NCBI RefSeq assembly: GCF_000340215.1
Contig: NW_006921540.1
Coordinates: 1,668,377-1,732,376, forward strand
From: Pseudocercospora fijiensis CIRAD86
Taxonomy: Eukaryota > Ascomycota > Dothideomycetes > Mycosphaerellales > Mycosphaerellaceae
Direction: 5' to 3'
Length of the DNA stretch: 64,000 nucleotides
Positions 4,805-46,500 of the stretch are shown piece after piece; within the stretch, counting starts at the first letter, position 1, and each line of letters opens with the position of its first letter. The position numbers and the translations under genes were made by a program. Under the pieces are notes generated by a model. The model was not told where the DNA came from and searched no databases. It was given only the letters and a program-made list of their open reading frames with translations.

Positions 4805-7522
4805 TTAGTAGTAGATCTTCTCTTCATAAATTGGAGGGCGGCCTTCATCGGCGTCCCAGCACACATTGTTCTTGTCATCAAGGTAAGCACCCTCGTCTGT
4901 GATGGGGATGACCTTGCCGGTGTCTGCCACTTCCTGTCGTGAAATGCCGACTGGGTCGCGTGGGATCCAGAGAAGGGGTGCCGGGCTGCCGATTGCTGGG
5001 TTGTAGAAAGCGTGATCCTCGGTCTCCTCTGTATAGTTGATGGCAATGTCCTTTGGTACAAGTCGGCGCATGGTCTCGTAGTCGGCGTAAAGGTCCGGGC
5101 GCAGCCACTTGGTGAAGAAGTTTGGCTTCTTCTGCGGAGCTGCGCCGAGCTCGTGGTTGGCGCCAGTGCTGTGAACGTGTGCCCCTTCCTTACCGGCACC
5201 GTCGGCGTACTGATCGCCCTCTGCAACGTTGCCATTCTCGATCTGAAGAAGGCGTCGCTCCTCGGCGTCGAGAGATTTTGGCAGGTAGTTGAGCAGTGGG
5301 TCCATGGCGCTGTTTAAGCTGATGTGGTAGAGCGCGGTGAAGATGAGGAAGACGATCATCAAAATCAGCGGTCCCAAAGCGCCAATGCTGGAGCCGGTGG
5401 CGATGGCGAACAGGCCGATGAGGCAGACCTCGGCTACGTACAAGCCGACGAAGAGGTGCTTCAGCGCACGTGGGTAGACCAGACCCTTGGTGTCAATGGA
5501 CGCGTTGGACACGAAGAGGAGGTTGTATCGGTAGGCGAAGTAGAAGAGGGACAATCCTATTGCCGCAAATCCCATGACGAGTGGAGCGATGGCAGCATAA
5601 CAGAATGCAATGACGAGCAAGTTGGTGTAGACGGGGAAGAGAGTGCCCCAGCCGAGGCCGCTCAGCTTGATCCAGCGTGAGTACATCTTGCGTGGTGTCT
5701 TGTCCAGGATCTTTCCAAGGACCATGAAGAGAACGAGGCCAACGAGACCGACCAAGAGACCAGAGACAATTCCGAGGCCCTGAAGGACAAAGTAGGAAAG
5801 ATAGAATGTGCTTGCCTTTGGCAATTGCGTGGCCAAAAGGGTGGTGACGCTGGATGGGTCGTCAACCACACTCTGGACCACAGAAGATGCAGCGGATCCC
5901 AGAGTTGCCACGAGGAAGACCTGGACGATCTGGAAGGCGAAGTAGCTGTTCTGGCAGTGAAGCTCCACGGCACTAAGTGTTGGAGCGCCTGCAAGCTTGG
6001 CCATCTTGCGGAGAATAATGGGAAGGAGTGACATGAGTACGGCCAGCAGAATGACGGGAAGCAGACCGGTCACGACACCACGGACGGCAGATGGGATGTC
6101 GTCAATGAAGCTCAGCCATGGCAGTGAGCAGGTCAGGTAGGTAATGTTGCTGATGGCACCGACGACGGCGACAGGGATGGACCAGAAGAGGACCAAGGCG
6201 ACAATGAAGGTTGTCGTTGCGATCTGGCGGACAACTCTCTCCCACCACTTGATGCGCAGGTTGGACCAGACGACTTCTTCAGGGCTCATGCCGACGAATC
6301 GCGGTGACATCTGGAGGACGTGGTGATGAGTGAGGCTCTGGTATGCAGCTTGGGCGGCACTGAGGGTATCGAATTCGACAAAGGCGGAGTTGAGCAGCGT
6401 GGCTTGGTTGGCCTTGTGCTTGGCTTGAGCCGCGTCGACCTTGGGGATGAGGCTCTTAAGCTCGCTGCGGCACCAGTCGATGGTGTCGACCTTCTTGCCG
6501 ATCAAAAACTTGAGCTTGTGTGTGGGGCGCTCTTTCTCCTGGAGGTAGCGAGCGGCAACAGCGCCTTCCTCGCCGATTGCAGCCTCCTCGGAGTTCTGGC
6601 GCCCAGTCTCCTTCTCAGCCTTGAGTCTGTTGGCATTTGCAGTCTTGATCAGCTTGGTCTCAGCGGCTTCAAGCTTCATGGCGGTCTTATCGCGCTCTTC
6701 AACAAGCTCTTCCAGCTCTTTGCAATCGGTAGACAGCCAGATCTTGCGGACGCCTGGCTCGAGCATGCTTCGAAGCTTCTGCTCGCTCATGTAGTCCTCC
6801 GGAATGCTCGTGTACAGGACTGTACGCGAGGAGATACGGCTCGCATAGAATGGCGACATGAGGTATGCCTGGCGCAGGTTGATGAAGTAAATGAGCTCGC
6901 GCGTGATCATGTAGATGACGAAGCTGAAGAAGAGGATGGCACAGCCTGCGTGAGCGAAGTAGCGGAAGTAGTAGCTGTTCGGTGAGCTGCCGTCTGGGGC
7001 CACGAGGTTGGCCATTGTGAGGATATCGAGTTGCTTTTGGCCACCTTGGCCCGTGATGTTGACTGGGAACAGCACTGGCCATGTTATCAAACAGCCGACG
7101 AGACAGCAGACGCAGGAGATCTTGAGGAATCGCAAGAAGAGGTAAGCGTCGAGAGTGTGGTGGTTCAAGACGTAGGTGTCGGGGAGACGGCAGAACTCGG
7201 CAAACCAGTTGAAGAGGCCATCTTTGGGTCGGGGGGTCCGCTGTTCTTCTCGCAATGAGCCGACGAAGGTGCGAGGTCTGTAATATCTGGGGAATCTATT
7301 GCGCAAAACGAGGAAAAGAAAGGCCCAGATCAAGGCATAGAGGGCGACTGGGGCAATAACCGAGACGACTGAAGTGGCCGAGTTGGAGTCGTTGGTGCTG
7401 GAGGACTGCGAAGAGCCGATATTCGCGTCTCCGCTTTGGCTCTGTCACCGAGGTCAGCACAAAGGTGTGGTGGTGGATTGAGTTTGGGCGAGGCTCACGA
7501 TGCCGCCGCAAGAGTTACCCAT
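4805..7522 (-). CDS. CSC1/OSCA-like (DUF221) osmosensitive calcium-permeable channel
   Basis: Two exons: 7522..7499 (MGNSCGGI) and 7441..4805, separated by a 57-nt intron (GTGAGC...CTGACCTCGGTGACAG). Together they give about 886 aa. The long frame without the small first exon lacks an ATG start. Layout follows the family: an N-terminal membrane segment (SVIAPVALYALIWAFLFLVL), two further membrane helices before the conserved LMSPFYASRISSRTVLYTSI stretch, a charged cytosolic PHM7_cyt-type loop of about 180 residues, then the multi-helix RSN1_7TM core (from about residue 390 to 690). A hydrophilic tail follows. Members form mechanically or osmotically gated cation channels in the plasma membrane or internal membranes. 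Length and domain order are complete, with no frameshift. Confidence 0.92.
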
Positions 7523-7926: not shown

Positions 7927-8629
7927 GTGGTCGTGAGTGGAGTGGCGAGAAATGCATGTGCCTTCTACGACAGACCGCCTCGATGTATAGAACTATCATA
8001 CCATCGCGTTAGCTATCGATTCCATGCTTTGGCGTTTCACAGGGTGATGCCTGCACAGACGCCTCCGTCCGAAAAGAGAGTGCACATGATGCGACATGTG
8101 ACATTGACAGCCTTCTAGCCACCCACCACCGCCACGGCATCTTGAATCCTTCGAAAACCGGTTTCCTGGTTGCAAACCACGTCGAGTTTCACATGATTCG
8201 AAAGTCGTGGGTCGGCGGCTCGCATGCGCGCACTCAACACTCTCAACTCGCGACGTCCAAATACCTACCTACAGCAGTATACAGCTGGTGCTCTCCGAGA
8301 TGTGACGACTGCCTTGATGATGCCGTGCCAGCGAAATTTCTGATTGCTTTCCGGAGAAACATCGTGGCTTTCGCACAGCGAACCCTCTCCAAACCTTCGG
8401 CCCTCAGCCATCTCACAATCCTGGGCTACTACTGGGGCTGATGAACACGAAGGCCCGCTCTCGAACCTCACATCTTCTTGACTTCAGCTGCTCCAGCATC
8501 TACAAATCAACCGAGTGATCCCCTGTGGTAGCTGAGCGGACAAATTCATCTTTTGCCGCAAAAAGTCACATAGGTTAGTAGGTCGCATAATTTACCTTAC
8601 ACGCCTCTAAGTGATAAAGTGACACCTAA

Positions 8630-16398: not shown

Positions 16399-16406
16399 CG
16401 AACTAC
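16399..16406. repeat. hAT target-site duplication, left copy
   Basis: CGAACTAC, identical to 26023-26030. Removing one copy with the element restores the Rep/helicase frame. Confidence 0.9.
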
Positions 16407-16426
16407 TAGACCCCGTAGTAGTTCGG
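16407..16426 (+). repeat. hAT left terminal inverted repeat
   Basis: TAGACCCCGTAGTAGTTCGG. It pairs with 26003-26022 at 18 of 20 positions; both differences are G/A or C/T. Confidence 0.88.
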
Positions 16427-16551
16427 TTTCCGAACTACTAAACGTATATAGTTTGGTTTCTTAGCGGCGAACTAGCTCCCTAGTTCCGGTTTAGTTTTTT
16501 CGAACTATATAGATTCCTAGTTTGAACTAGAGACTATATTAGTTTTACTAC

Positions 16552-16860
16552 AAGGACACTCTTATTCGACTGCCGGCTACGATTGCCGGCTATAATAGTA
16601 ACTCTGTTACATTTACTACGCTCTTTTGCCGTTGCTAGGGCGTAGTTGCTGTTACTAGGGCGTAGTTGCCGTTACTAGGGCGTAGTTTTGCTATAAGGAC
16701 ACTCTTATTCGACTGCCGGCTACGATTGCCGGCTATAATAGTTACTAGGTTGTATTTACTACGCTTTATTACCGTTGCTAGGGCGTGGTTGCCGTTGCTA
16801 GGGCGTAGTTGCCGTTGCTAGGGCGTAGTTGCTATTACCGGGGCGTAGTTGCCGTAGTTA
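16552..16860. repeat. 143-bp tandem duplication with 15-bp minisatellite, hAT left subterminal region
   Basis: Two units start at 16552 and 16695 (aaggacactcttattcgac...). Each contains two copies of the GCCGGC repeat and then several copies of gttgctagggcgtag. Subterminal repeats of this kind are where hAT transposases usually bind; that role is inference here. Confidence 0.75.
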
Positions 16861-16984
16861 CGAAAGCTTACCTATATAACGTTACGTAGGCGGCAACAAT
16901 TAGGGCTTCGCGATATTCTTATACTTTCAACTTCTTCCTCTATACCTATACCGATAATAACTACTATACGCTACGCCCCTGCCC

Positions 16985-18400
16985 CTTTCCCTTATAATAG
17001 TAAGAGAGAAACGCGCCGCGCGCTAAATAGAAGATAGAACTAAAGACCGCGAGTTTGTTTTACCTAAGCGTCTAACTAAAAAGCGTAAGACTAAAGAGGA
17101 GTACTCTACGAAGAAGAATTCCGTACGAGACCGCGAGAGAAAGGACAAGATAGATAAGGATAAAAGAGCTAAGGATAAGAGAAGAAAGGCGCGGAATAAG
17201 GCATTCTATCGATAGCTAGCGCCTATAGAAAAAAGTAAAGGTTAGAATAAGAAGACAACCTAAGAGAAGGCTAAGAGGAGGAAAGAATTGCGGCTAGTTT
17301 TCGAGCGTAAAGTTCTAGTAGCGTAAGTCAATCTAGCTAGCGGCCGTAGCTAGTAGCTATAGCCGGTAGCTGTAGCCGGCAGCTATAGCCGGTATATTTT
17401 TCTTTAATACGTTAACTAATAGCATTTAGACCTATAGCCGCTACCTCTATCGATACGACCGATAGTAACGGAGATGTTTAGATAGCCGAGAACAACAATA
17501 CTAGAGTTTAGGATGCCGCGATAGAGCTTAATACTACGAATAAAGGAACTAAAAAAAGCGAGGAGATACTATACGTCGATCTAGTAACAGGTGCAGTCTT
17601 AGGGCCTAACGCTATAGACGATAAGCGCTAGGAGTAGATCGAGCATAGTTAAAGAGACGAGATACTAGTAAAGGGCTAAGGTATAAGTCCTATTAATCTA
17701 GAAAATCATAGTTAAAGCTACTACGAAAAGCTAGCAAGGATTGGAATCGAGACTAGTCGTCTTTATATCCTCGATATAGAGTAGAAGTTTCTTTATTAGT
17801 ATTAGAGCGAAGCCTTTACGTCTATAAAGGCAAAGTAGCTTGCGATTAATGCGATCGGGGCTAGGTATCTAGGGACGGCAGAAGTGTTACTATAGGAGGA
17901 AGGGGTATAGGTAATTATTCTATACTCGGCATATATAGCCGGCGTTCGTAGCCGGTAGATACTAATAGTTAAATAGAAAGCGTTTCTTAAAGGCAGAGTA
18001 CTACTACTATATAAAATCTTTACTAAGGTAGAGAGGGCTTGTATCCGGAATCTAAGCTACTAGTAGGATAGGTTAGCGTTAGAATTCTCTAAATCTCTAT
18101 ATAAGCCTCCGAAGGATTACCTATTTTAGCGATACGGCTTTATCTCGACTACTCTATAGGCACCCGAAGAAGCTCGAGCGCTCTTTAAGGTCTTTACTAA
18201 GAAGCGGAAGGAGTTCGAGGATTAGGATTAGTTAATAGAGCTATTAGTTAGTCTTAGGTTTCGTAGTTAGACTCGGCCTAAGCATTTGCTTATCGAGTGT
18301 CTTATACCGAAAGAGGATAGATTGAGACTAAAAACGAGCTTAGATTCGTTAGGTATAGTAGCTCGGTTCCGTTAGTAGGAGAGAGCCGCCGTATAGAAGG
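16985..18400 (+). pseudogene. Lys-rich unknown protein, first gene of the hAT element
   Basis: The plus frame begins near 16985 (start codon apparently mutated to ATA). Its N-terminal ~110 residues are almost entirely Lys/Arg/Glu (for example KDKIDKDKRAKDKRRKARNK). The 90-nt intron 17333-17422 (GTAAGT ... TTAACTAATAG) and 58-nt intron 17911-17968 (GTAATT ... ACTAATAG) both contain the GCCGGC repeat. The later exons read as an ordinary globular protein (LYILDIEQKFLYQYQSEAF, EARALFKVFTKKRKEFED). I recognise no domain; a DNA-binding or chromatin role would be a guess from charge alone. A short AG-rich tandem repeat (ctagtagttaggtagctagg type) follows at about 18405-18530. Confidence 0.5.
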
Positions 18401-18639
18401 CAAAATTCAGGTAGTTAGGGTAGCTAGGAAAGAAATTCTAGTAGTTAGGCTAGCTAGGGTAGCTAGGAAAAAAAATCTAGTAGTTAGGTAGCTAGGAAAC
18501 AAAAAAAAAGGTAGCTAGCTATTTACTGCCTAGCTATTCCTAACGATACGATACTATAAAAGAAAGGGTGTTTCCCTATAGCTACTAGTATATATCTACT
18601 ACTCCTAAGTCCTTACCTTACCGTACGAAACCTTAAAAC

Positions 18640-21600
18640 ATGCCGACCGACATTGTATATACACTAGGCGCTATACTAGGAAGGGTAATAACGAGACGAT
18701 AGTCGAAACAGTCTAGTATACGAGCGAGATTGCGACAACGTCGAGAGGAGGTCGTATACTTACCTTCGAGCCTATCGAGTCCTAGACGACGATTAGGGCT
18801 AGATTTATCCTCTCCGAATCCTAGTAGTAGGAATTCATTATAGGGTACTACTACCTAGTCCTTACCTTTACGGAGTCTAAGTAGAAGGTTGTTCGGAGAT
18901 ATAAGAATATCGAGTATTAACCCGGAAATCTTCGAAAAGGCTAGCTAGGCGTATCTTTAGAAACCCGAGTATATAGAGCAGTTCAATTAATAGGTCTATA
19001 AGATATAGTTCCCTTTATACTTACGTTCAAAGGAGTATAAACTCCGGAAGTACTCGATGCGATAGGGGAGTAAGGAGCGAACGGACATATTCTAGAAGTT
19101 CTTTATAGAGGGGGCATTGCACCGTTATACGACTTCTCGACTTAAAGGTTAACTAGTAATTGTCTATAACTTCTACGGTTCAATCTTAAAATATCCGAAA
19201 CTAGGGGATAGGAACTTATCGCCTACGAACTATCTCTATTCTAAACGGTATCGGGAATCTTAAGGAGAGAGGAGAGTTAATATAGATACAGCGTTCTAGA
19301 AAGAGGTACGTCTTCTAAAATGCCGGCTATAGCTACCGGCTATAGCTGCCGGCTATAGCTGCCGGCTACAGATTCCGGCTACAGATTCCGGCTACAGATT
19401 CCGGCTATAGATTCCGGCTACTTAAATCAACCGTAGAGGTCTAGCTAATTATTATAGGCTACGCTTAAGGAAGCTCTAGGATTAAAGGCTACCGATTTCT
19501 CCCCCGAAGACTTTAAGTAACTAGTAAACGAAATGCTAGCTACAAACGGTCTTCCGGAAGACTTCTACGAAAGGGAGTCTATATAGAAGACATACCTATA
19601 TCTTATAAACTACCCTCCCCTATTTCTCGGCGCGACAACCTAGCGTATTATATTCGAAAAGAATAAAGAGGCTACGTTAGACGATATTCGGGAGATCCTC
19701 CGTAATACTCGCCGAGTAGCTATTACTATCGATAGCTAGTTAAGCCGGACTATAAGAGCCTCCTTCCTCTCGATTATACTATACTTTATTAATTCGGATT
19801 GGAAACTCTAGGAACTTATAATCGGATTCCCTAAAATTCTAGGTTCCTATACTAGTAAGGATATAGCGAAGCTTGTCTATACGGCAATAGATAGGGTTAG
19901 CGTAATAACGAAACTAATCTCGATTACTGCGGACAACGCTAGTAATAATCGAATATTGTATAAGGCGTTGTATATACAATTCACTCGCATATGTCTTTAA
20001 AATTACTAATTGTATCGATAGGGTCGAGTACGTAGAGGAGATTATAAGGTCTATAATCTAGCTTAATCTTCCGAATATTAAGCTCGCTACGATTCCGGAT
20101 ACGTACGATAATACGTACGATAATAACGATAAAGAGGAGCCTATTAATAGCCCTAGCCCTAACGAATCGGAGCCGACGTCGTTGCTAGTTATATCCCTAT
20201 AGAAGTTTCCCTACCTCGCTTATATAGTTTAAATCGCGATCCGAGCCCTCTTTAAGACGCTTAAAATTGCACTATTAAACGACGACTAATAGAAGATCCT
20301 AGATAAGGATAAAGTAAAGTCGAAAGTCGAGAAACTTATTATAGTAATAAGACGGGATAAGGTAGAGAGCCTCGCTCTCGTTTTATATAAGGTATAACTA
20401 TTGTCCGTAGCCGGCACCTATAGCCGGCAACCTAGTATAGTTCTAACTCTTTTTCTCTAGCTTCGTCGTCTAGCAATATATACGAACTCGAGCTTATAGA
20501 GATATAACCGATTCGAGGCTATTTAAAAGAACCTAATCGAGCGCCCTAAAACCGATGCCTAGAATATCGTATAGAATAAGCGATAGCAAAAGCGGCCTCC
20601 TTAGCGCCTACTCCGTTTTACCTAAGACGTTAAGATCCGGTTCGATTCGACTTTCTATATAGTTACGAGGGGATATACTTTACGTACCGCTCTCGAGATC
20701 TATTAGAGTTCCGAGGGTATTAAGTAGCTCGGCCTTACCGCCGCCGAATAGCGCTAAGCAGAGTATCTCGTCGATATTAGTAAGCATTACGCGAAGGTTA
20801 CTACTACGATTAGAAGAACCCGAGGACCGACGATCTACCTTGTCTTTGCGTACTATAACTAGCTCTTTAACGAGCTCGAGGAAACCGTAGCTAAGCTAGC
20901 TAAGAAGAGCGTTCCCTAGAAAGTAGCTATAACGAAAGCTATAGACACCTCCTATACTAAGTTATATAAATATTATAGTGCTACCTTTAACTCGTTCGGG
21001 GATATCTATAGCGTTATATACTTGCTTAACCCGGTAGAAAAGGATATATACTAGTAGAGGCCGGAATAGAAGGCGGACGAGGTATAGCCGAAGCATTACT
21101 AGACTATTCTAGAAAAGATATTCTACGAGCGTCGGAAAGAAACTAGTCTAAATACAGCTCCTATAAAGAAAAAGAAGGTTTAGAAGGCTCCGACATTATA
21201 CCTATTTCGTAGGTAGGAAGTAGAGGTAGAAGAGGAAGCAACTACTAAAGTAAATAAAGAAGAGTTCGATCTCTATCGGCGCGCGAGTAAGTACAAAGCC
21301 GTAGGCTCGGAAAGAGGGCTAATAATCTCTAGATCTTACCGGTCTTCTAGACGAATTCGGAGACGATATTCTCGCTATATAGCAGCGGTTAGAGCCTAAG
21401 TTTCTAACGATAGCGTCGGTCGCTCGGGACGTCCTCGCTATCCCGAGTGTAGGTATAGGCTATAAGAGGTCTTTTAGTATCGCTCGTTACTAGGGCCGCT
21501 TTAATCGAATATACTCGCCTACTACCTTCGAATCTATTATAGTATTCCGATACTATCTCCTCTACTAGAATCGCTAAGGTAGGTTACTAAAGATTATACT

Positions 21601-21808
21601 AAAGGAGTTAATCGAGGAATTAGAAAACCTTAAGATCGAAGAAACTTAGGAGCGCGAAGAGAATACGAAATTTAGTTTAAGCGAAACCCTAATTAGCGAT
21701 AACGAAGAGGAGGAGGGCGGAGGTAGAAGGCGATACCGGGTCGAGAAGCGGAAACGTATATAGGCTTAGAGTAGCTTTAAGGAGACGAAGCGTTTACGTA
21801 TAAGGTAA
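18640..21808 (+). pseudogene. hAT transposase (RNase H-like with C-terminal dimerisation domain)
   Basis: ATG at 18640. Introns at 19306-19457 (GTACGT ... CTAATTATTATAG; phase 0) and 20392-20460 (GTATAA ... TTCTAACTCTTTTTCTCTAG) both hold the GCCGGC repeat. A further intron or indel is needed near 20000 to keep the frame. Diagnostic hAT segments: VAITIDSWLSRTIRASFLSI with the catalytic-type Asp near 19730, ISITADNASNN near 19920, and the C-terminal dimer segment PKFLTIASVARDVLAIPS near 21390 followed by a RGR-like helix (GRFNRIYSPTTFESIIVFRY). The N-terminal part lacks a clear BED finger. Stops are TAG/TAA at Gln/Trp positions. Strong family match; not functional. Confidence 0.9.
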
Positions 21809-22119
21809 TATAGCCGGCGTATATAGCCGGTATATATCCGAAATGTGTTTCGAATTCCTAGGACCTAAACAGACTAGTTGCTATAGCAACCGACCCCGCT
21901 TACCTACGGACTATTTCTAATTCTCTATTCGCTCTTCCTCTCCTTCTTCCCTTTCCCTACATTCTTAAAGACAAATATACCTTAAGGATTCGGCTTTTCG
22001 GGCCTTCCTAAGCCGGCTGCCTCCCCTTCCTTAAGCCACTATCCTTTATTCGAATCTAACGATAACCTAATAAGGCGGTTTAATAGAAGACTATTTGTTC
22101 TAGAAGGTAAGAAGCATTA

Positions 22120-23302
22120 ATGTCTCCTTACGATTATATGCTTATTAATTTTCTAGGTCCTACCGATATACCCTCGTCGCCTAAACGCGCAGATAAATAT
22201 CTTTAGAGGCTAAAGGGCAAGGGTAAAGCAAGCTAAGCATAGGGAGACTGTAGCGAGAACGAGATATCGGAAGAGTAAGGCTCTCCGTAGTATATACGAA
22301 GGAAGGGGGTTCCTCGGAAAACAGTACCGAAAAATAAGAAGGCTATAGGTAGATAGGAGAAGGCTAAAAAGAGTAGGCGGACGAAGACTATCGCGAAGAA
22401 AAGTTATCTTTCTATTAAAAGAAAGGGAATAAGGTAGGACTCGACGACAAAGAAGCGGCGCTTTAAACTAGGTACTATTGCCCTTCGCTAGATCCGGCTT
22501 TTCTAAAACAAAAGAGGGACCGAGCTTTTAATCCCTAAGACTCCCTTCTAGTAACTCGTCCGAGAAATTATATTAGATTTTCGGTCTAGTATACGATTTA
22601 CGGCTAAGGCGATTAGTGCTCTTTAGGAAGCTACGGAGGCATTTCTCGTAACCGAGCTTAAGCTTTTAAACCTCCTTACTATCTATACGAAGCGGGTTAC
22701 TCTTTAAAATAAAGATATATAGCTTCTAGCTAAAATTCGGCGTCGGTTTATAGCGGATTAGTTGGAAATTGTATTTAGTCGTTAGATTAACCTAGGAGGA
22801 GGCCTATTTTCGTATCCTTTTGCCGGCTATAGGTGCCGGCTATATTTCTAATTTTATCTCCGCGCCGTCCCTAAATCTAAGGTACGAAGTAGAAACCTAG
22901 CGCTCTATATTTACCCGGCTATTATAGAGACGAGCTATATTTAGATTAGTTTCTTCGTATATCGCGACCTAGCGGGTAGTAAGCGAAAGGGCGATAGAAC
23001 GTTTATAATACGTCTCTATTTAGACCTAAAATACAAAGGTCCTAAGGAGCCCTAGCATCCTAACTATAAGGAGATTCTTTAGTATTAGTACTTTGATCCT
23101 CTATACTGCGAGGCAGATAGTAAGCCTGCGAGAGAGAAACTTTAACGAGAAATTCTCTATAATACGTAGCGCTATTATATAGCTATAGATGCGCACTAAG
23201 TCCGGCAACTCGAAGAAGAATTAAGATAGCGTATTAGCGACCGAGGAAGAGATCGATAGTATACTAGTAGAGTCGAGGTCTTATAAGCGAAGTATAAGAT
23301 AA
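22120..23302 (+). pseudogene. histone H3-like gene 1 carried by the hAT element
   Basis: From ATG 22120 one frame runs through a ~115-residue basic tail (far longer than the canonical H3 tail) into an H3 fold starting at 22471: GT(I)ALRQIRLF, TELLIPKTPF, LVREIILDFRSSIRF, ISALQEATEAFLV, IYTKRVTLQNKDIQLLAKI, reading RIP stops as Gln. From the REI motif to the end of helix 3 it aligns with canonical H3 without a gap, including loop 1, so it lacks the loop-1 insertion of CENP-A. It has a two-residue insertion in the N helix region (FQNKRGTELL). A 70-nt intron 22812-22881 containing the GCCGGC repeat leads to a C-terminal extension of about 135 codons with no counterpart in H3. About 16 RIP-type stops make it non-functional. 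Confidence 0.85.
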
Positions 23303-24078
23303 TATAGGCTCTTAGTCGTATAGAGTAACGTACTATATAAATAACTAGGCGTACTACTCTTATTCACTTACGACCTATATCCTAGGATACTCTTCTCGTA
23401 CTTTTTATACTCTTTTCTAATACCTCACCTATAAGCGCTCCGCGATAACCGAGTAAATATAAGCTGTAGGGTTTCCGCTCGGTACCTTAGCCTCCGAGAT
23501 AGGGCGGAGTTAAATTTAGAGCGATAGCCGGCACTCGTAGCCGGTATATAGAGACGGTAGTAGGCCTTTTCCTACTAAATAACTAGCTTGTTTAGTATAG
23601 CCTACCTAATATTTCTTATATTTACTAGCAATAGGCCTAGGTTACTTATAAGATTACTATAGCTAGTAAAGGCATTACTAAAGAATATCTATACTATAGT
23701 AAGATACTATTATTACGCCGGCTATTTATTAAAAGGAGGCTTTCGCCTATTACTATGTCGGCTATATATGCCGGCTATATTTTAAAGTCTCCCGTACCTA
23801 CCTTTTTTAGCCGTACCTACCTTTTTTAGCCGTACCTGCCTTCTTTCCTTACTCTAACGTTACTATAATATAGGCTTACGCGAAGCTTACTCTGTTACCT
23901 AGCGATACCGCGATACTACCGCTATATTCAACCTTCGTATCGATACCTATACCTCTACGCTCTATATCTACTACCTCCGTAATACCCTCGCTCCGCGCGC
24001 GCCTTCGTATACCTTCGTAACGTACTTTTTTCCTTAATTCGACGACTTTTATAATAGCGAGTCTACTTAACTAAGTTA

Positions 24079-24867
24079 CGACGCCTCGCAAGAAGGGACC
24101 TAGTGCTTCTACGGGTCGTAATAAGACCGGAAATAGTAGAACGAGTATAGTACATTAACGCAAGAGGGCTGCTGCTGCTACCGCTAGCTCCGGTACTAGA
24201 AAGGGCGTCGCGAGTAAGGCTCCGCGTAAGATAACGGCGGGCAAGGCTCTACGTAAGACGACAACTAGCGCTTCTACTACTAGTAGCAATCGTACGAAGC
24301 GTCGATAGCGCCTAGGAAGTAAGTCCTATTTATAGCCGGTAGCGTAGCCGGTAGCGTAGCCGGTAGCGTAGCCGGCATTCTTACTGTCTTTTTACTAATC
24401 CTTCTTTAGCCGTAGCCCTCCGTAAGATTCGGCAGTATTAGAAGAGTTCTTAGCTCCTAATCCGCAAAGCTCCTTTCTAACGACTTGTTCGCGAAATTGC
24501 CTAGGATTATAGAACGGACCTTCGCTTCTAAGCCTCCGCAATAGGCGCCCTTTAAGAGGCTATAGAAGCCTACCTAGTTCGTATCTTCGAATATATGTTT
24601 CTCTTCTACCTCTTTTCGGACTATACTAATACTATTTTAGCGGTTAACCTTATAGCTATCTACGCGAAGCGTATAACGATTATAGATAAGGATTTCAAAG
24701 CACTCGATTAGATTCTAAAAGGCTAGAATGTCTATATTCGAGACGGTGCTAGGTAGGATAGATGTTCTAGTAGAAAGGATGTTCGTAGTGTTATCTATAA
24801 GCTTTTCTATATACGAAATAAGCCGCTATTATACGGCGCTACATACCGCGCTCTAAATACTCTCTAA
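24079..24867 (+). pseudogene. histone H3-like gene 2 carried by the hAT element
   Basis: Exon 1 encodes a basic Ser/Thr/Lys tail (SKAPRKITAGKALRKTT) ending RLG. The 91-nt intron 24319-24409 (GTAAGT ... TTACTAATC ... TTTAG) contains four GCCGGC-repeat units. Splicing joins RLG to TVALRKIRQYQKSS exactly at the conserved H3 GTVALR motif. It continues LLIRKAPFQRLVREIAQDYR, TDLRFQASAIGALQEAIEAY, then NLIAIYAKRITIIDKDF after a likely 60-nt intron 24581-24640 (GTATCT ... ACTAATACTATTTTAG) that would drop about four residues of helix 2. This copy is closer to canonical H3 than gene 1 and also has a C-terminal extension of about 50 residues. The start codon is not clear (possibly mutated). Confidence 0.87.
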
Positions 24868-25050
24868 GCATATATATATAGTATAGTATGCTTTATTGGC
24901 CGTACGGAATAGAAGTCTCCTAAAATCCCGTTAGTACTAAGGAGTAAAAAGGCCGGCTACGCTGCCGGCTACGCTGCCGGCTACGCTACTAGCTACGCTA
25001 CTAGGTTTTTTAAAGAACTAAAAGAAGATAGACATTCCGGTTGATTTGTA

Positions 25051-25590
25051 TTAGTTTAGATTTTTATAAAAAGAAAATAGGGAAAAATAAGGAAGGTTGA
25101 AGAGCCTAATAGTTATAGTTATAGGCACTATCCCTGTTTTCTAGAGTATATTATATACCTGCCTTCGTAACTCTACCTAATACTCCCTCTAAATATCCTT
25201 ATACTCTACCTACTAAAAATTCAACTAGGTACCTAAACCTATAGCTGCCTCTATATCTTTTACTATCTTCTATAGGTTAAAGGCCTCTTCTATAGTAGCC
25301 TCTACCTCCTTATACAATACGAAGTTACTACCTACCCTACCCTTTATATCTCCTAAATAACTAAGAGTTCTAAGGAACGAACTAGCATTCGGCCTTAGTA
25401 TAGCGAGTAACTAGTAGAACGTTCTATAGAGCTGCCTTATAGCTCTTTTATATACTATACCGATACCGAGGGAGGAGCTATCCTAGTACTTAATATTGTC
25501 GAATAGTTCGGTAGGAAAGTGTATAAACTTCTTAAGGAGGAGGACTTCTAGGGAAATCGATAAGTTCTGCCTAGATCTAGATAAAGACAT
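25051..25590 (-). pseudogene. small unknown protein, minus-strand gene of the hAT element
   Basis: ATG at 25590-25588, frame to TAA near 25051 (about 179 codons) with roughly ten TAG interruptions at probable Gln codons. The N-terminal part is MSLSRSRQNLSISLEVLLLK. The middle is mostly helical (YKEVEATIEEAF). I recognise no family. It is the only hAT gene on the minus strand and faces the right TIR. Confidence 0.5.
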
Positions 25591-25680
25591 TCTACTAAGC
25601 AGTTAGGGAATTGAACCGTAAACGAAAGGATGAAATTTATACCTAAGGAGTACAGTTTCCGAACTAAACTATAATGCCTT
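25588..25680 (-). repeat. tRNA-like sequence next to the minus-strand hAT gene
   Basis: The reverse complement contains a B-box GGTTCAATTCC and an A-box-like TATAGTTTAGTTCGG with plausible spacing. The acceptor stem pairs poorly. SINE-derived or decayed tRNA. Confidence 0.35.
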
Positions 25681-26002
25681 ATATATATATGTATATGCTT
25701 TTGATTGGTTAGTGCCCTTAGCTAATTGTCTATAGATTTGAGGTTATATAAGTACCTTTATACAACTATATAGCCTAAGTAGGATTCGAAAATTCTATAA
25801 GTACTAAGGACTAAAAATGCCGGCTACGCTGCCGGCTACACTGCTAAGTCTTACAAAGGGCTTGCTTGAAGCTACGTATACATTCGTACACTTCTTAAAA
25901 ACCGATAAATTATATAGTTCGAACTAGCTACTTATATAGTTGCTTAGCAAACCAACCTAAACTAAACTAGAGTTTCGGCTTAGCAAACTAAACTAAACTA
26001 AC

Positions 26003-26022
26003 CCGAACCACTGCGGGGTCTA
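26003..26022 (-). repeat. hAT right terminal inverted repeat
   Basis: Reverse complement TAGACCCCGCAGTGGTTCGG. The A-rich Leu/Asn-like run just inside (aactaaacta repeats, 25950-26001) is probably subterminal sequence. Confidence 0.88.
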
Positions 26023-26030
26023 CGAACTAC
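26023..26030. repeat. hAT target-site duplication, right copy
   Basis: CGAACTAC, identical to 16399-16406. Confidence 0.9.
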
Positions 26031-35049: not shown

Positions 35050-38000
35050 CTATAAGGGGCTATAATACATTATTAGTACTACCCCTTATTATAATAGCCG
35101 GTTTATCGCGAAGTAACAACAACCGTACTACCGCTAGTAGCGCTAGCAATAACAACGCTAGTAGCATAGTACCTGCTAAAGTGCCTACTAAAGCACCTGC
35201 TAAAGTACCTACTAAAGAGCCTGCTACTAGACCTGCCGAAGAACCTGTAGTTCTAGGCGACGACCTAGAATTGCCTATTAACGACATTCTTAACAATATT
35301 GTTAATCGACGATATAGCTAACTAGCCTTTAGGCCCTAGCTAGTAGCGAGACTTTAGGAAGCTACCTAAAACAGGCTCGCTGCTCTACGCTAAGAACAAC
35401 AGCTAAAGGATAATCTCCTTAAGATTCGTCGCCTTTAGGAGGCCCTAACAACTAATACTAAGCCGATAGCAGGGCCGTCCTTACTATTAGTCCTAGTCTA
35501 GAAGAAGGATGCTAAACTTAAGGACTGCACCGTGTTTAATAGCTCTAGTCGAAAGCAATACAATAACTATATTCGTAACTGTAAGCTTAACTAGCGCAAT
35601 ATACCGAGAGCGCTACTAGATAACTATTCCTTAGTTGTCTATACTATGCAGTATATCAACGGTGACCCTAAGCGTATATAGGATAACCATTTTAATTCCC
35701 TTTACGACTAGACCGCTATTCAATAGCAGGATTACAAGACTATTATGCTAAACACCCTTAGCAACCCTATATTACGCTAGCAGCACGCCTAAGACTAATA
35801 CCTACGTGCTAAGCAAAAGGCCGACTAAACCTCTCGATCCTTCGAGGCCTATCTAAAGACCCTTAAGGACGATTTGCTACCTAAGACCGACTCTATCTAG
35901 ATATCTAAGATACGACCTAAACTAAGATAGGAACTAGTCCTTGAATTAGACCGCCGCCGTATGTTCGAACAGGCCAATCTTATACGCATTCAATTCATAG
36001 TTAAAGTAGAGACTATAGAGCGTATAGTATAGCTATAGCAACGGTTAGAATCTAAGATACGACTATCTACTAACCGTAGCCGCGGTAGAAACTAAGGAGG
36101 TACTCCCCAAACTAACACTACTAACAATAGAAACAGTAACGACTAACGTGGAAGAGGCAGGGGCCGATACCGCGGTAGAAACCCCTAGCGAGGAAGAGGA
36201 TAAGGAAGGGGCTTATTTCTATATACCCCTAATCGTTTATCTAATTCTAGTACCAATTCGAGCGGACCTAGCGGTGCCCTAACTAGATACAAGTGCTTTA
36301 ATTGTAACAGCACTACTCATTTACTAGGCTAATGTAATAGGCCCCGAGACTAGGCCCGAGTCGACCGTGCTACCGCTAAATACCGAAAGTACCTCTTAGC
36401 CGCTAATGCTACCTCTATTAGCCCTTCTAACTATTCGAAAAAAGAATAAGCGCCGCACTAACTATTAGCCTTGTACGGCGTAAGACTATCGACATTGTAC
36501 TAGCTATTATACGCACCTGTCTCGTATCGGACTCGTATAGCAACAATTATAGAGCTAAGGTTATGCTAGACCTAGGAAATTCAGTTAGCGCCCTTATTAG
36601 CTATCGCCTAGCTAAGCAATTAGACCTTCGACAACTGCCGAAGACTAACCTGCTAACCCTTACTTAGTTTAATAACGCTCGGTACTTAACCTACGGAGCC
36701 TACTATATCTATATAGCTCTAAAGGACGACCTCGGAAATGAACGCCTACTAAACTTTACTGCCTACGCGGTAGACATAGACAGCCTCCTATCCGACATTG
36801 TTATTAGCAACCCTATTCTTAAGTACTATACTATAGTTATAGACTTAGGCAGTCAACAATAGCGATTTAGAATCGCTAGGAAAGAGGACATTAAACACAT
36901 CGATATTAGCGAGTGTCCTAATAATATTAGGGTCCTATTTATTAGCAACCTAACTCCCGCCTTAGCTAATCCAACTGCCGACCTGCTCGGTAGTAATAAC
37001 GATGAACTAGTGCCCCCTAATAGCATAGATCCTAAACAGCTTAAGCGTATACTAGAACCTATTCGAGAGACCTATATTAATGTATTCAAACACTACTTAG
37101 CATCGACATTGCCTATATTTAAAGAGACGGATTATAAGATTAATATTATAGAGGGCAAAGAGGTCCCTTTTAGACCCCTCTACAACCTTAGTAAACGAGA
37201 GCTTGCTATATTGCGTAAGTACCTAGAGGAAAACCTAGCTAATAGCCGGATACAGTATAGTAACAGCCCTGCTAGTGCCCCTATCCTGTTCGTACTAAAG
37301 AAAGATAGTAGCCTACGCCTCTATATCGATTATTATAGGCTCAATGCTATTACTATTAAAGATCGTTGTCTACTTCCTCTTATTAATAAGGCCCTCGATC
37401 GCCTTTCTAGTACCTACTACTATACTATATTAGACATTAAGGACGCCTATTACCGCATCCGTATTCGTAAGGGCGATGAATAGAAGACAGCCTTTCGTAC
37501 TCGCTATAGCCATTTTGAGTACTTAGTTATACTATTTAGGCTAGCTAATGCCTCTGCTACATTCTAGTCCTACATTAATCGGGCCCTATTAGGCCTATTA
37601 GATTACCTCTATATAGTTTACCTAGATAACATCCTAGTTTATATACACTCTCCTAACATTGCGGAACACTAGGCTACAGTCCGTAAGGTACTCGATCGCC
37701 TAAGGGCCTATAGCTTATATTGTAAGCCTTCTAAATGCACCTTTGCTACTAAAGAGGTATCCTTCCTTAGCTTCCTCGTATTAACCGAGGGTATTAAGGC
37801 TAATCCTAATCGGATTAAGACTATTACTAAGTAGCCGACGCCTACTAGTATTAAAGAGCTTCAATTATTCCTAGGTTTTGCTAACTTCTACCGTCGATTT
37901 ATCGAAGGTTACTCGCGGCACGTAATGCTACTAACTAAGCTTACTAAAACCAAGGCCAACCCGACTAGAGAGTTCAAATAGACTAACAGAGTATAAGCCG

Positions 38001-43599: not shown

Positions 43600-46500
43600 T
43601 CCGTATCTTAGGGGCTAATAATACATTATTAGTGTTACCCCCTATTATAATAGCCGGCTTATTACGAAACAACAACCGTGCTACCGCTAGCAGCGCTAGC
43701 AATAACAACGCTAGTAGCATAGTACCTACTAAAGTGCCTACTAAAGCACCTGCTAAGGTGCCTACTAAAGAGCCTACTACTAGGCCTGCCGAAGAACCTA
43801 TAGTTCTAGGTAACGACCTAGAATTGCCTGTCGACGATATTCTTAACAACATTGTTAATCGTCGATATAGCTAACTAGCCTTTAGTCCTTAACTAGTAGG
43901 GAGACTTTAAGAAGCTACCTAAAACAGGCTTACTGCCCTACGTTAAGAATAATAGCTAAAGGATAATCTCCTCGAGATCCGCCGCCTATAGGAAGCCCTA
44001 ACAACTAATACTAAGCCGATAGCAGGGCCTTCCTTACTATTAGTCCTAGTCTAGAAGAAGGATGCTAAACTTAAGGACTGTACCGTATTTAATAGCTCTA
44101 GCCGCAAGTAGTACAATAATTATATACGTAATTGTGAATTGAACTAGCGGAATACACTAAGGGCCCTGCTAGACGACTATTCGCTAGTCGTCTATGCTAT
44201 GCAATATATTAATAGAGACCTAAAGCGTACCTAGGATAACTACTTTGACTCTCTTACTAATTAGACCGCTATTTAGTAGCAAGACTATAAGACTATTATG
44301 CTAGACACCCTTAGAAACCCTATACTAAGGCAACAACACGCTTAGGACTAATACCTTCGAGCTAAACAAAAGACTAATTAATCGGCCCGTTTATTTAAGG
44401 CCTATTTAAAGACCCTCGAGGACGATCTGCTAGCTAAGACCGACTCTATCTAGATTTCCGAAATACGCCCTAAATTGCGATAGGAATTGGTCCTTAAATT
44501 GGACCGCCGCCGTGTGTTTGAATAGACCAACCTAACACGCATTTAATTCATAGTCGAGGTAGAAACAGCTAAACGAGCTGTCTAGCTCTAGTAACGACTA
44601 GAATTAAGGATCCGACCTGCTAGCAACCGTAGTAACCGTAGCCGCGGAGGAAACTAAGGTTCCTACTAGGACAACAATGCTAACAATAGGAACAGTAACG
44701 ATCGTAGAAGAAGCCGTAGCCGGCGGCTATATAGAGGAGGCTACGATAGAGGCCGTAGAAGGGGCTCGTATCCCTATAGTACTAATCGCTTAGCTAATAA
44801 CAGCGGCAATAGCTATAGCAATCCCCTAACCGGACTAAAGTGCTTCAATTGTAATAGCACTAGCTATCTACTAGGCTAATGCGACAAACCTAAGGACTAG
44901 GCCCGAATCGACCGTACTACCGCTAAATACCGAAAGTACCTTTTAGCAGCTAACGCTACCCCTATAGGCCAACCTTCGAAAAAAGAGTAAGCGCCGCACT
45001 AACTATTAGCCTCGTGCGGCGTAAGACTATCGACATTGTGCTAGCTATAATACGCTCCTGCCTTGTATAGGATACGAAGGGTACTAGCTATTAAACTAAG
45101 GTTATACTAGATCTAGGAAATTTAGTTAGTGCCCTTATTAGCTATCGCCTAGCTAAGCAATTAGACCTTCGATAACTGCCGAAGACGGACCTACTAACCC
45201 TTGCTTGGTTTAATAACGCTCGGCACTTAACCTATAGAGCCTACTATGTTCCTATAGCTCTAAAGGACGACCTCGGAAATAAACGCCTACTAGACTTCAC
45301 TGCCTACGTAGTAGATATAGACAACCTATATAGGGGAGCTACTATTGTTATTAGCAACCCTGTTCTTAAGCACTATGCTATAGTTATAGACTTAGGCAGT
45401 TAACAATAGCGATTTAGAATCGCTAGGAGAGAGGACATTAAACACATCGATATTAGCGAGTATCCTAATAATATTAGGGTCCTGTTTATCGGCAACCTTA
45501 TACTAGCCTCCGCCTTAGCTAATCTAACTACCGACCTGCTCGGTAGTAATAACGATAAACCTATGCCCCCTAATAGTATAGACCCTAAACAGCTTAAGCG
45601 TATACTAGAGCCTATTCGAGAAACCTATATTAATGTGTTTAAACACTACCTAGCATCGACATTGCCTATATTTAAAGAGACGGATTATAAGATTGATATT
45701 ATAGAGGGTAAGGAGGTTCCTTTTAGACTACTCTACAACCTTAGTAAGCGCGAGCTTACTATATTGCGTAAGTACCTAGAGGAGAACCTAGCTAATAGTC
45801 GTATTCGGTATAGTAATAGCCCTACTAGTACACCTATCCTATTCGTACTAAAGAAGGATAGTAGCCTACGTCTATATATCGACTATCGTAGGCTTAATGC
45901 TGTTACTATTAAAGACCGCTGTCTACTCCCTCTTATTAATAAGACCCTCGATCGCCTTTCTAGGGCTTACTACTATACTATACTAGATATTAAGGATGCG
46001 TACTATCGTATCCGTATTCGTAAGGGTAACGAATAGAAAACAGCCTTCCGCACTCGCTATAGCTATTTCGAGTACTTAGTTATACTATTTAGTCTAGCTA
46101 ATGCCCCTATAACATTCTAGTCCTATATCAATCGGGCCCTTTCGGGCCTATTAGACTATCTCTATGTAGTTTACCTAGATAACATCCTAGTTTACACACA
46201 TTTACCTAATATTACAGAATACTAGGCCGCAGTACGTAAGGTCCTCGACCGCCTACGAGCCTATAGCCTATATTGCAAACCTTCTAAATGCACCTTTGCT
46301 GCTAAAGAGGTGTTATTCCTTAGCTTCCTTATTTCAACCGAGGGTATTAAGGCTAATCCTAACCGGATTAAAACAATTACTAAATAGCCTGTTCCTACGT
46401 CTATTAAAGAGCTTCAATTATTCCTAGGTTTTGCTAACTTCTACCGTCGGTTTATTAAGGGCTACTTACGGCATGTGATGCCCCTAACTAAGCTTACTAA

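What the first reader, a model, noticed from the sequence alone, without database searches (positions are those of the whole stretch)
22120..24867. Two histone H3-like genes carried as cargo inside a hAT transposon
Between transposase and right TIR lie two separate H3 homologues. Gene 2 is near canonical across the alpha-N, alpha-1 and alpha-2 helices (PFQRLVREIAQDY, LRFQASAIGALQEA). Gene 1 is more diverged but aligns without gaps from REI to the end of helix 3. Both have unusual tails and C-terminal extensions, and both lack the loop-1 insertion of CENP-A. Both lie well inside precise TIRs and an 8-bp TSD. I know of no described hAT family that carries histones. An element that supplied its own H3 might influence chromatin or silencing at its copies; that role is inference.
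Basis: partly seen in the sequence, partly recalled or inferred. Interest (0 to 1): 0.93.

Follow-up and report, generated by a model that had tools for sequence, protein, structure and literature searches.

The report
Transposon carrying two histone H3 genes
This is a dead copy of what is very likely an already published fungal jumping gene (hAT type) that carries two histone H3-like genes; three diverged subfamilies in the same genome kept both reading frames in step, and one gene has two predicted introns, so the histones were likely working proteins of the transposon and not just a copied host message.

Summary
Window 16407-26022 is a 9,616-bp element with 20-bp inverted ends (18/20 matched) and a perfect 8-bp target duplication. 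Two H3-fold genes lie downstream of a hAT-like transposase; all are full of RIP-type stops. The claim that no such hAT is described fails: Dhillon et al. 2019 (PMC6710886) describe this family in Pseudocercospora fijiensis, very likely this genome, and Manning et al. 2013 a similar hAT in Pyrenophora.

New here: (1) gene 2 has two predicted introns, 91 and 48 nt; 48 nt equals the published '16-aa insertion' of the second copy, so the published 'retrocopy without introns' reading does not fit gene 2. (2) Three subfamilies (A, B, C; five copies read) carry both H3 genes in one order, with the gene 2 introns. (3) Indels between subfamilies are multiples of three in both H3 genes, but mostly not in introns and flanks. 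(4) Gene 2 changes fastest of the three genes compared. (5) The 'C-terminal extensions' are not supported.

I read the H3s as resident accessory genes of the transposon, likely translated and perhaps put into nucleosomes; that role is inferred. Against: genes 1 and 2 lack the clear codon-position signal that the transposase shows.

The parts
16399..16406 (.). left target-site duplication CGAACTAC
   Evidence: identical 8 bp at 26023-26030
16407..16426 (+). left terminal inverted repeat (20 bp)
   Evidence: 18 of 20 bases pair with the right end; the same ends in 11 of 20 other copies
16407..26022 (+). whole hAT-type element, subfamily A, 9616 bp
   Evidence: TIR plus TSD; 11 complete copies elsewhere of 9537-9663 bp
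17470..18440 (+). upstream coding-like region (ORF0), function unknown
   Evidence: long coherent frame with RIP stops in A, B and C; no Pfam match
18639..21800 (+). hAT-like transposase, broken by RIP, with a predicted intron at 19306-19457
   Evidence: Dimer_Tnp_hAT at E 0.006 in A, 0.03 in C, 0.018 in B, all below the curated cut-off; codon position 3 excess of transversions between subfamilies; intron by scan
22120..22761 (+). gene 1: diverged H3-like gene, no intron found in its fold, likely stop at 22759-22761
   Evidence: Pfam Histone E 6.6e-20; PDB H3s; indels all multiples of three between subfamilies; intron scan negative
24078..24726 (+). gene 2: H3-like gene in three predicted exons (24078-24318, 24410-24592, 24641-24723), likely stop 24724-24726; start codon not settled
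   Evidence: Pfam Histone E 1.1e-27; PDB H3s
24319..24409 (+). predicted intron 1 of gene 2 (91 nt; GTAAGT...CTAAT...CTTTAG), holds a CCGGCTA-type minisatellite
   Evidence: signals in 15 of 16 subfamily A rows, the 16th masked, and in 4 of 4 B and C copies; best pair of an unbiased scan in A, B and C
24593..24640 (+). predicted intron 2 of gene 2 (48 nt; [GA]TATRT...CTAAT...TTTTAG)
   Evidence: 48 nt in 5 of 5 copies of A, B, C; acceptor in 16 of 16 A rows, donor GT in only 3 of 16, mostly AT, which I ascribe to RIP; second best-pair choice of the scan in A, B and C
26003..26022 (-). right terminal inverted repeat (20 bp)
26023..26030 (.). right target-site duplication CGAACTAC

Best explanation
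The window holds a RIP-killed copy of a hAT-type element, very likely the one published from P. fijiensis, whose two H3-like genes kept their reading frames while three subfamilies diverged and so were likely translated accessory proteins of the transposon, one of them from a gene with two predicted introns. Shown: TIRs, TSD, both H3 folds, both genes in the same order in five copies of subfamilies A, B and C, frame-keeping indels, and gene 2 as the fastest-changing of the three genes compared. Predicted: splicing of gene 2. Inferred: the transposase cut and pasted the element by its TIRs, and the H3-like proteins would pair with host H4 and enter nucleosomes, perhaps at element copies, to keep them accessible or blunt silencing. 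Passive capture of a spliced host H3 transcript, the published reading, does not fit gene 2; capture of a genomic H3 copy, or descent of an older H3 line within the element, fits better.
For: TIR, TSD and both genes in 11 of 11 complete A copies of 20 fetched and in a complete B element. Intron scan best in A, B and C; a third cut adds at most 4 score units. Indels in H3 coding sequence that are multiples of three: A-B 5/5 against 6/30 in introns and flanks (p 0.0014), A-C 5/5 against 8/22 (p 0.016), B-C 4/4 against 6/24 (p 0.010) (pairs not independent). Gene 1 rows form one clade (100/99) and gene 2 rows another (98/96), apart from host H3 and CenH3. Transversion rate of gene 2 is 0.114, 0.068, 0.120 against 0.045, 0.016, 0.043 for the transposase.
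Against: Genes 1 and 2 do not show the codon-position signal that the transposase shows (gene 1 p 0.46, 0.80, 0.65; gene 2 fold p 0.029, 0.61, 0.074, tail p 0.22, 1, 1), so purifying selection on amino acids is not demonstrated. Intron 2 has a GT donor in only 3 of 16 A rows and in none of the 4 B and C copies. All five copies whose frames I translated are broken. No expression data, no H4 binding data. Relatives in other species could not be reached.
Confidence: 0.62

Rival explanations
1. Passive transduplication, as published: a host H3 transcript was captured, copied along with the hAT element and killed by RIP, and never worked for the transposon.
For: Authors' inference from exon-exon junctions without introns (PMC6710886). 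Gene 1 has no intron found in its fold. No clear codon-position signal in genes 1 and 2. 148 of 150 scored Histone matches in the genome hold internal stops.
Against: Two predicted introns in gene 2, the published 16-aa insertion being 48 nt; frame-keeping indels across three subfamilies.
Confidence: 0.3
2. The cargo derives from the centromeric H3 (CenH3) and would act at centromeres.
For: Both genes have long, unusual tails, and gene 2 shares some tail and alpha-N residues with host CenH3 by eye.
Against: No loop-1 insertion; identity to host H3 is higher than to host CenH3 (gene 2 A 55/83 against 47/83; gene 1 A 46/86 against 43/87).
Confidence: 0.05
3. The H3 genes are a later separate insertion in one hAT copy, not cargo of the family.
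For: None found for the genes themselves; noncoding blocks between and behind them do differ between subfamilies.
Against: Both genes in 11 of 11 complete A copies of 20 fetched and in all four B and C copies.
Confidence: 0.03

Closest known systems
H3-carrying hAT family of Pseudocercospora fijiensis and five relatives (Dhillon et al. 2019, PMC6710886; parts 1 to 5 of 7 of the text read)
   Same: 74-Mb genome, full length 9.5-9.9 kb, 20-bp TIR, 8-bp TSD, two H3-like copies in each full-length element, RIP in AT-rich blocks, intact H3 on scaffold 6 (here contig 6).
   Different: They infer a captured transcript without introns and a 16-aa insertion in the second copy; here gene 2 has two predicted introns, one of 48 nt, and the family splits into three subfamilies that kept both frames.
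H3L hAT element of Pyrenophora tritici-repentis (Manning et al. 2013, PMC3538342; passages seen)
   Same: hAT transposase, then further ORFs including an H3-like gene that is neither canonical H3 nor CenH3; ESTs reported.
   [quoted passage not shown] Dhillon et al. found no nucleotide similarity to the P. fijiensis element.
Fungal DNA transposons that encode a TET/JBP dioxygenase, hAT7 among them (PMC12730594; passages seen)
   Same: A hAT carrying a chromatin- or DNA-modification gene as cargo.
   Different: An enzyme, not a histone; other fungal lineages, 7-bp TSD in hAT7.

Membership tests
hAT superfamily | 8-bp target-site duplication | tested here: met
   perfect in the window; 8/8 in 10 and 7/8 in 1 of 20 further copies, the other 9 lacking a right end in the stretch fetched; perfect in the B element
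hAT superfamily | short terminal inverted repeats | tested here: met
   20 bp, 18 of 20 paired
hAT superfamily | C-terminal dimerisation domain of the transposase (PF05699) | tested here: inconclusive
   E 0.006, 0.03, 0.018 in A, C, B, all under the curated cut-off; frames are RIP-damaged
hAT superfamily | DUF659 domain, reported by Dhillon et al. for this family | tested here: inconclusive
   not among the Pfam matches of the pieces scanned
hAT superfamily | catalytic DDE residues | not tested
   frame too damaged; not mended
Published P. fijiensis hAT-H3 family | length 9.5-9.9 kb, 20-bp TIR, two H3-like copies per full-length element, RIP | tested here: met
   9,616 bp; 11 complete copies 9,537-9,663 bp; two H3 genes; RIP-type dinucleotide bias
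Published P. fijiensis hAT-H3 family | TIR letters equal to the published logo | not testable with these tools
   figure not held
H3 retrocopy (transcript capture) | no introns | tested here: not met
   gene 2: two predicted introns; gene 1: none found in its fold
Histone H3 | histone fold matching PF00125 and H3s above other chains | tested here: met
CENP-A / CenH3 | loop-1 insertion | tested here: not met
   absent in all ten element rows, present in the host CenH3

The most novel reading that the evidence does not exclude
A transposon lineage evolved its own pair of histone H3 variants, resident since before its subfamilies split. One comes from a spliced gene whose exons diversify faster than its own introns and than the transposase, most of all around alpha-N, loop 1 and the start of alpha-2, as in an arms race. 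The element uses them to build nucleosomes that escape or reset host silencing.
Probability: 0.3. Interest if true: 0.8.

Novelty: already known. Interest (0 to 1): 0.45.

Why it matters
The element is in print, so the headline is not new. The corrections matter: if the transposon's H3 genes were spliced, frame-maintained and fast-changing in three subfamilies, the published story of a passively copied housekeeping gene becomes one of a transposon with its own histone variants. That can be tested directly in Cercospora, Sphaerulina and Pyrenophora, where relatives are reported.

Tried and rejected
Search of 5.8 billion predicted proteins with gene 2: 104 candidates, none at E 1e-5 or better, although the same gene matches H3s in PDB and Pfam; I infer that the collection holds few eukaryotic H3s, so no cross-species tree was possible. 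C-terminal extensions as parts of the genes: rejected. CenH3 origin: disfavoured. A clean claim of positive selection on gene 2: not made. Its exons exceed its introns in transversions (A-B 54/495 against 1/138, p 2e-5; A-C 32/465 against 3/117, p 0.085; B-C 53/468 against 2/117, p 6e-4) and its codon positions 1+2 exceed position 3 of the transposase (p 0.046, 0.006, 0.019), but gene 2 position 3 is raised as well in the fold, the intron minisatellite may be homogenised, and the three pairs are not independent. Transposase exon limits were set by eye. In one search the gene 2 fold stretch ran 94 bases past the stop; one search repeats it with the right end, and only those numbers are used. 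A common origin of genes 1 and 2 is not resolved. H3-less derivatives were not systematically sought.

Full report
What is there. From 8 to 52 kb the window is a RIP-type block: TpA/ApT is 1.61-2.2 and (CA+TG)/(AC+GT) 0.11-0.49 in the 22 two-kb bins starting at 8001 to 50001, against 0.41-0.78 and 1.11-1.49 in the 10 bins on either side. Inside it lies a 9,616-bp element at 16407-26022 with TIRs matching at 18 of 20 bases and the TSD CGAACTAC. Of the 40 best matches to its left 500 bp (491 candidates), one is the window; 20 of the other 39 were fetched. Of these 20, 11 show both TIRs with a TSD (10 perfect, one 7/8), 9,537-9,663 bp long. Gene 1 is fully present in 18 of the 20 and gene 2 in 15 (one, L021, partly N-masked); all 11 complete copies hold both. 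A genome search with Pfam Histone gave 772 candidates, 150 of them scored; 148 rows hold internal stops, and the two that do not are the host H3 on contig 6 and an exon of the host CenH3 on contig 5.

It is published. Dhillon et al. 2019 (PMC6710886; parts 1 to 5 of 7 read) describe in P. fijiensis, 74 Mb, 784 H3-like copies in 471 hAT elements, full length 9.5-9.9 kb, 20-bp TIR, 8-bp TSD, two H3-like copies in each full-length element, and the original H3 on scaffold 6. This genome has 73.9 Mb and its intact H3 on contig 6, so it is very likely the same species and element; no tool named it. Manning et al. 2013 (PMC3538342; passages) reported a hAT with an H3-like gene in P. tritici-repentis. 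A 2026 paper cites the P. fijiensis case (PMC13041039; passages).

Gene 2 has predicted introns. Its tail and its fold lie in different frames, and the fold carries a 48-nt block. A scan of all pairs of a [GA]T[AG] donor and an AG acceptor, 40-125 nt apart, scored against the host H3, picks the same two introns first and second in A, B and C: 294, 353 and 293 pairs tried, score 235 to 329, 176 to 265 and 187 to 251; a third cut adds 0, 4 and 0. Intron 1 is 91, 103, 91, 69 and 69 nt in the five copies, GTAAGT to TTAG in 5 of 5; intron 2 is 48 nt in 5 of 5. In subfamily A, intron 1 signals stand in 15 of 16 rows (the 16th is masked). The intron 2 acceptor stands in 16 of 16, its donor is GT in 3 of 16 and mostly AT otherwise, and it is AT in all four B and C copies; I ascribe that to RIP. 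With both removed the fold aligns with H3 without a gap. Intron 1 lies in phase 1, one codon downstream of the host's second intron, also phase 1; intron 2 has no counterpart in the host gene. Dhillon et al. report that the second copy differs by an insertion of 16 AAs and infer a transcript or retrocopy. As 48 nt is 16 codons, I take that insertion to be this intron. The same scan finds no gain in gene 1 (231 unspliced, best of 132 pairs 227). That the intron reading is not in print rests on searches of an open-access library only.

Three subfamilies. L003 is 77-86% like the window's element over its longer pieces. A search with part of it gave 44 matches (40 of 735 candidates scored): 11 at 87-100%, 29 at 79-84% and 4 short pieces at 85-87%. 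I read two B copies (C12, C20) and two C copies (C6, C13). The C12 element is complete, 8,599 bp, with GAAGTAAA on both sides; in the C6 copy my scan found no right TIR, while the C13 copy aligns to the right end. All four carry gene 1 and gene 2 in the same order. In a 14-row tree gene 1 rows form one clade (100/99) and gene 2 rows another (98/96), apart from host H3, CenH3 and two PDB H3s, so both genes predate the subfamily split. Whether they are duplicates of each other is not resolved.

Were they working genes? Indels in H3 coding sequence are multiples of three in 5 of 5 (A-B), 5 of 5 (A-C) and 4 of 4 (B-C) cases, against 6 of 30, 8 of 22 and 6 of 24 in introns and flanks (p 0.0014, 0.016, 0.010; pairs not independent). 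The transposase shows the excess of transversions at codon position 3 expected of a working gene (36/25/68, 8/11/28, 38/21/63; p 3e-6, 2e-4, 2e-5). Against my reading, gene 1 does not (p 0.46, 0.80, 0.65), and neither does the gene 2 tail; the gene 2 fold does so for A-B only (p 0.029; A-C 0.61, B-C 0.074). Gene 2 is the fastest of the three genes (0.114, 0.068, 0.120 transversions per site; gene 1 0.059, 0.030, 0.039; transposase 0.045, 0.016, 0.043). Over the three subfamilies, codons with a transversion number 0 of 8 at residues 45-52, 18 of 38 at 53-90, 0 of 15 at 91-105 and 10 of 28 at 106-133 (H3 numbering by my alignment). So the changes gather from the end of alpha-N to the start of alpha-2 and again, chiefly in B, in the third exon. 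This is fast evolution with the frame kept; whether relaxed or diversifying I cannot separate.

How it would work. The transposase would move the element. The H3-like proteins would pair with H4 and enter nucleosomes; that they acted at element chromatin is inference. A K9-like lysine survives in all five gene 2 rows, while the K27-like site falls in a 27-nt deletion in the two C copies (sites named by my alignment), so a tail that simply cannot carry the K9 mark is not the explanation. Roles of single H3 residues and the usual ends of hAT elements are recalled, not tested.

Noticed in passing
window 16573-25838: CCGGCTA/TAGCCGG minisatellites: 37 of 47 occurrences in the window lie inside the element, and 14 of the 37 inside introns predicted by scan (17911-17976, 19306-19457, 24319-24409). 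They could be transposase binding sites or intron-tolerated repeats.
   Followed up: partly
window 24319-24640: The introns of gene 2 differ less between subfamilies than its exons (transversions A-B 1/138 against 54/495). Not explained.
   Followed up: partly
window 17470-18440: An upstream coding-like region in A, B and C without any Pfam match.
   Followed up: partly
L002, L004, L006, L007, L008, L014, L018, L028: Copies with a second copy of about 360 bp of the element (6745-7107) behind gene 1.
   Followed up: no
window 22793-22922 and 23445-23574: A 130-nt inverted repeat, 70% complementary, behind gene 1.
   Followed up: no
window 37010-37483 and 45563-46036: Two near-identical 157-aa open frames that by eye look like pieces of an LTR-retrotransposon reverse transcriptase.
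   Followed up: no
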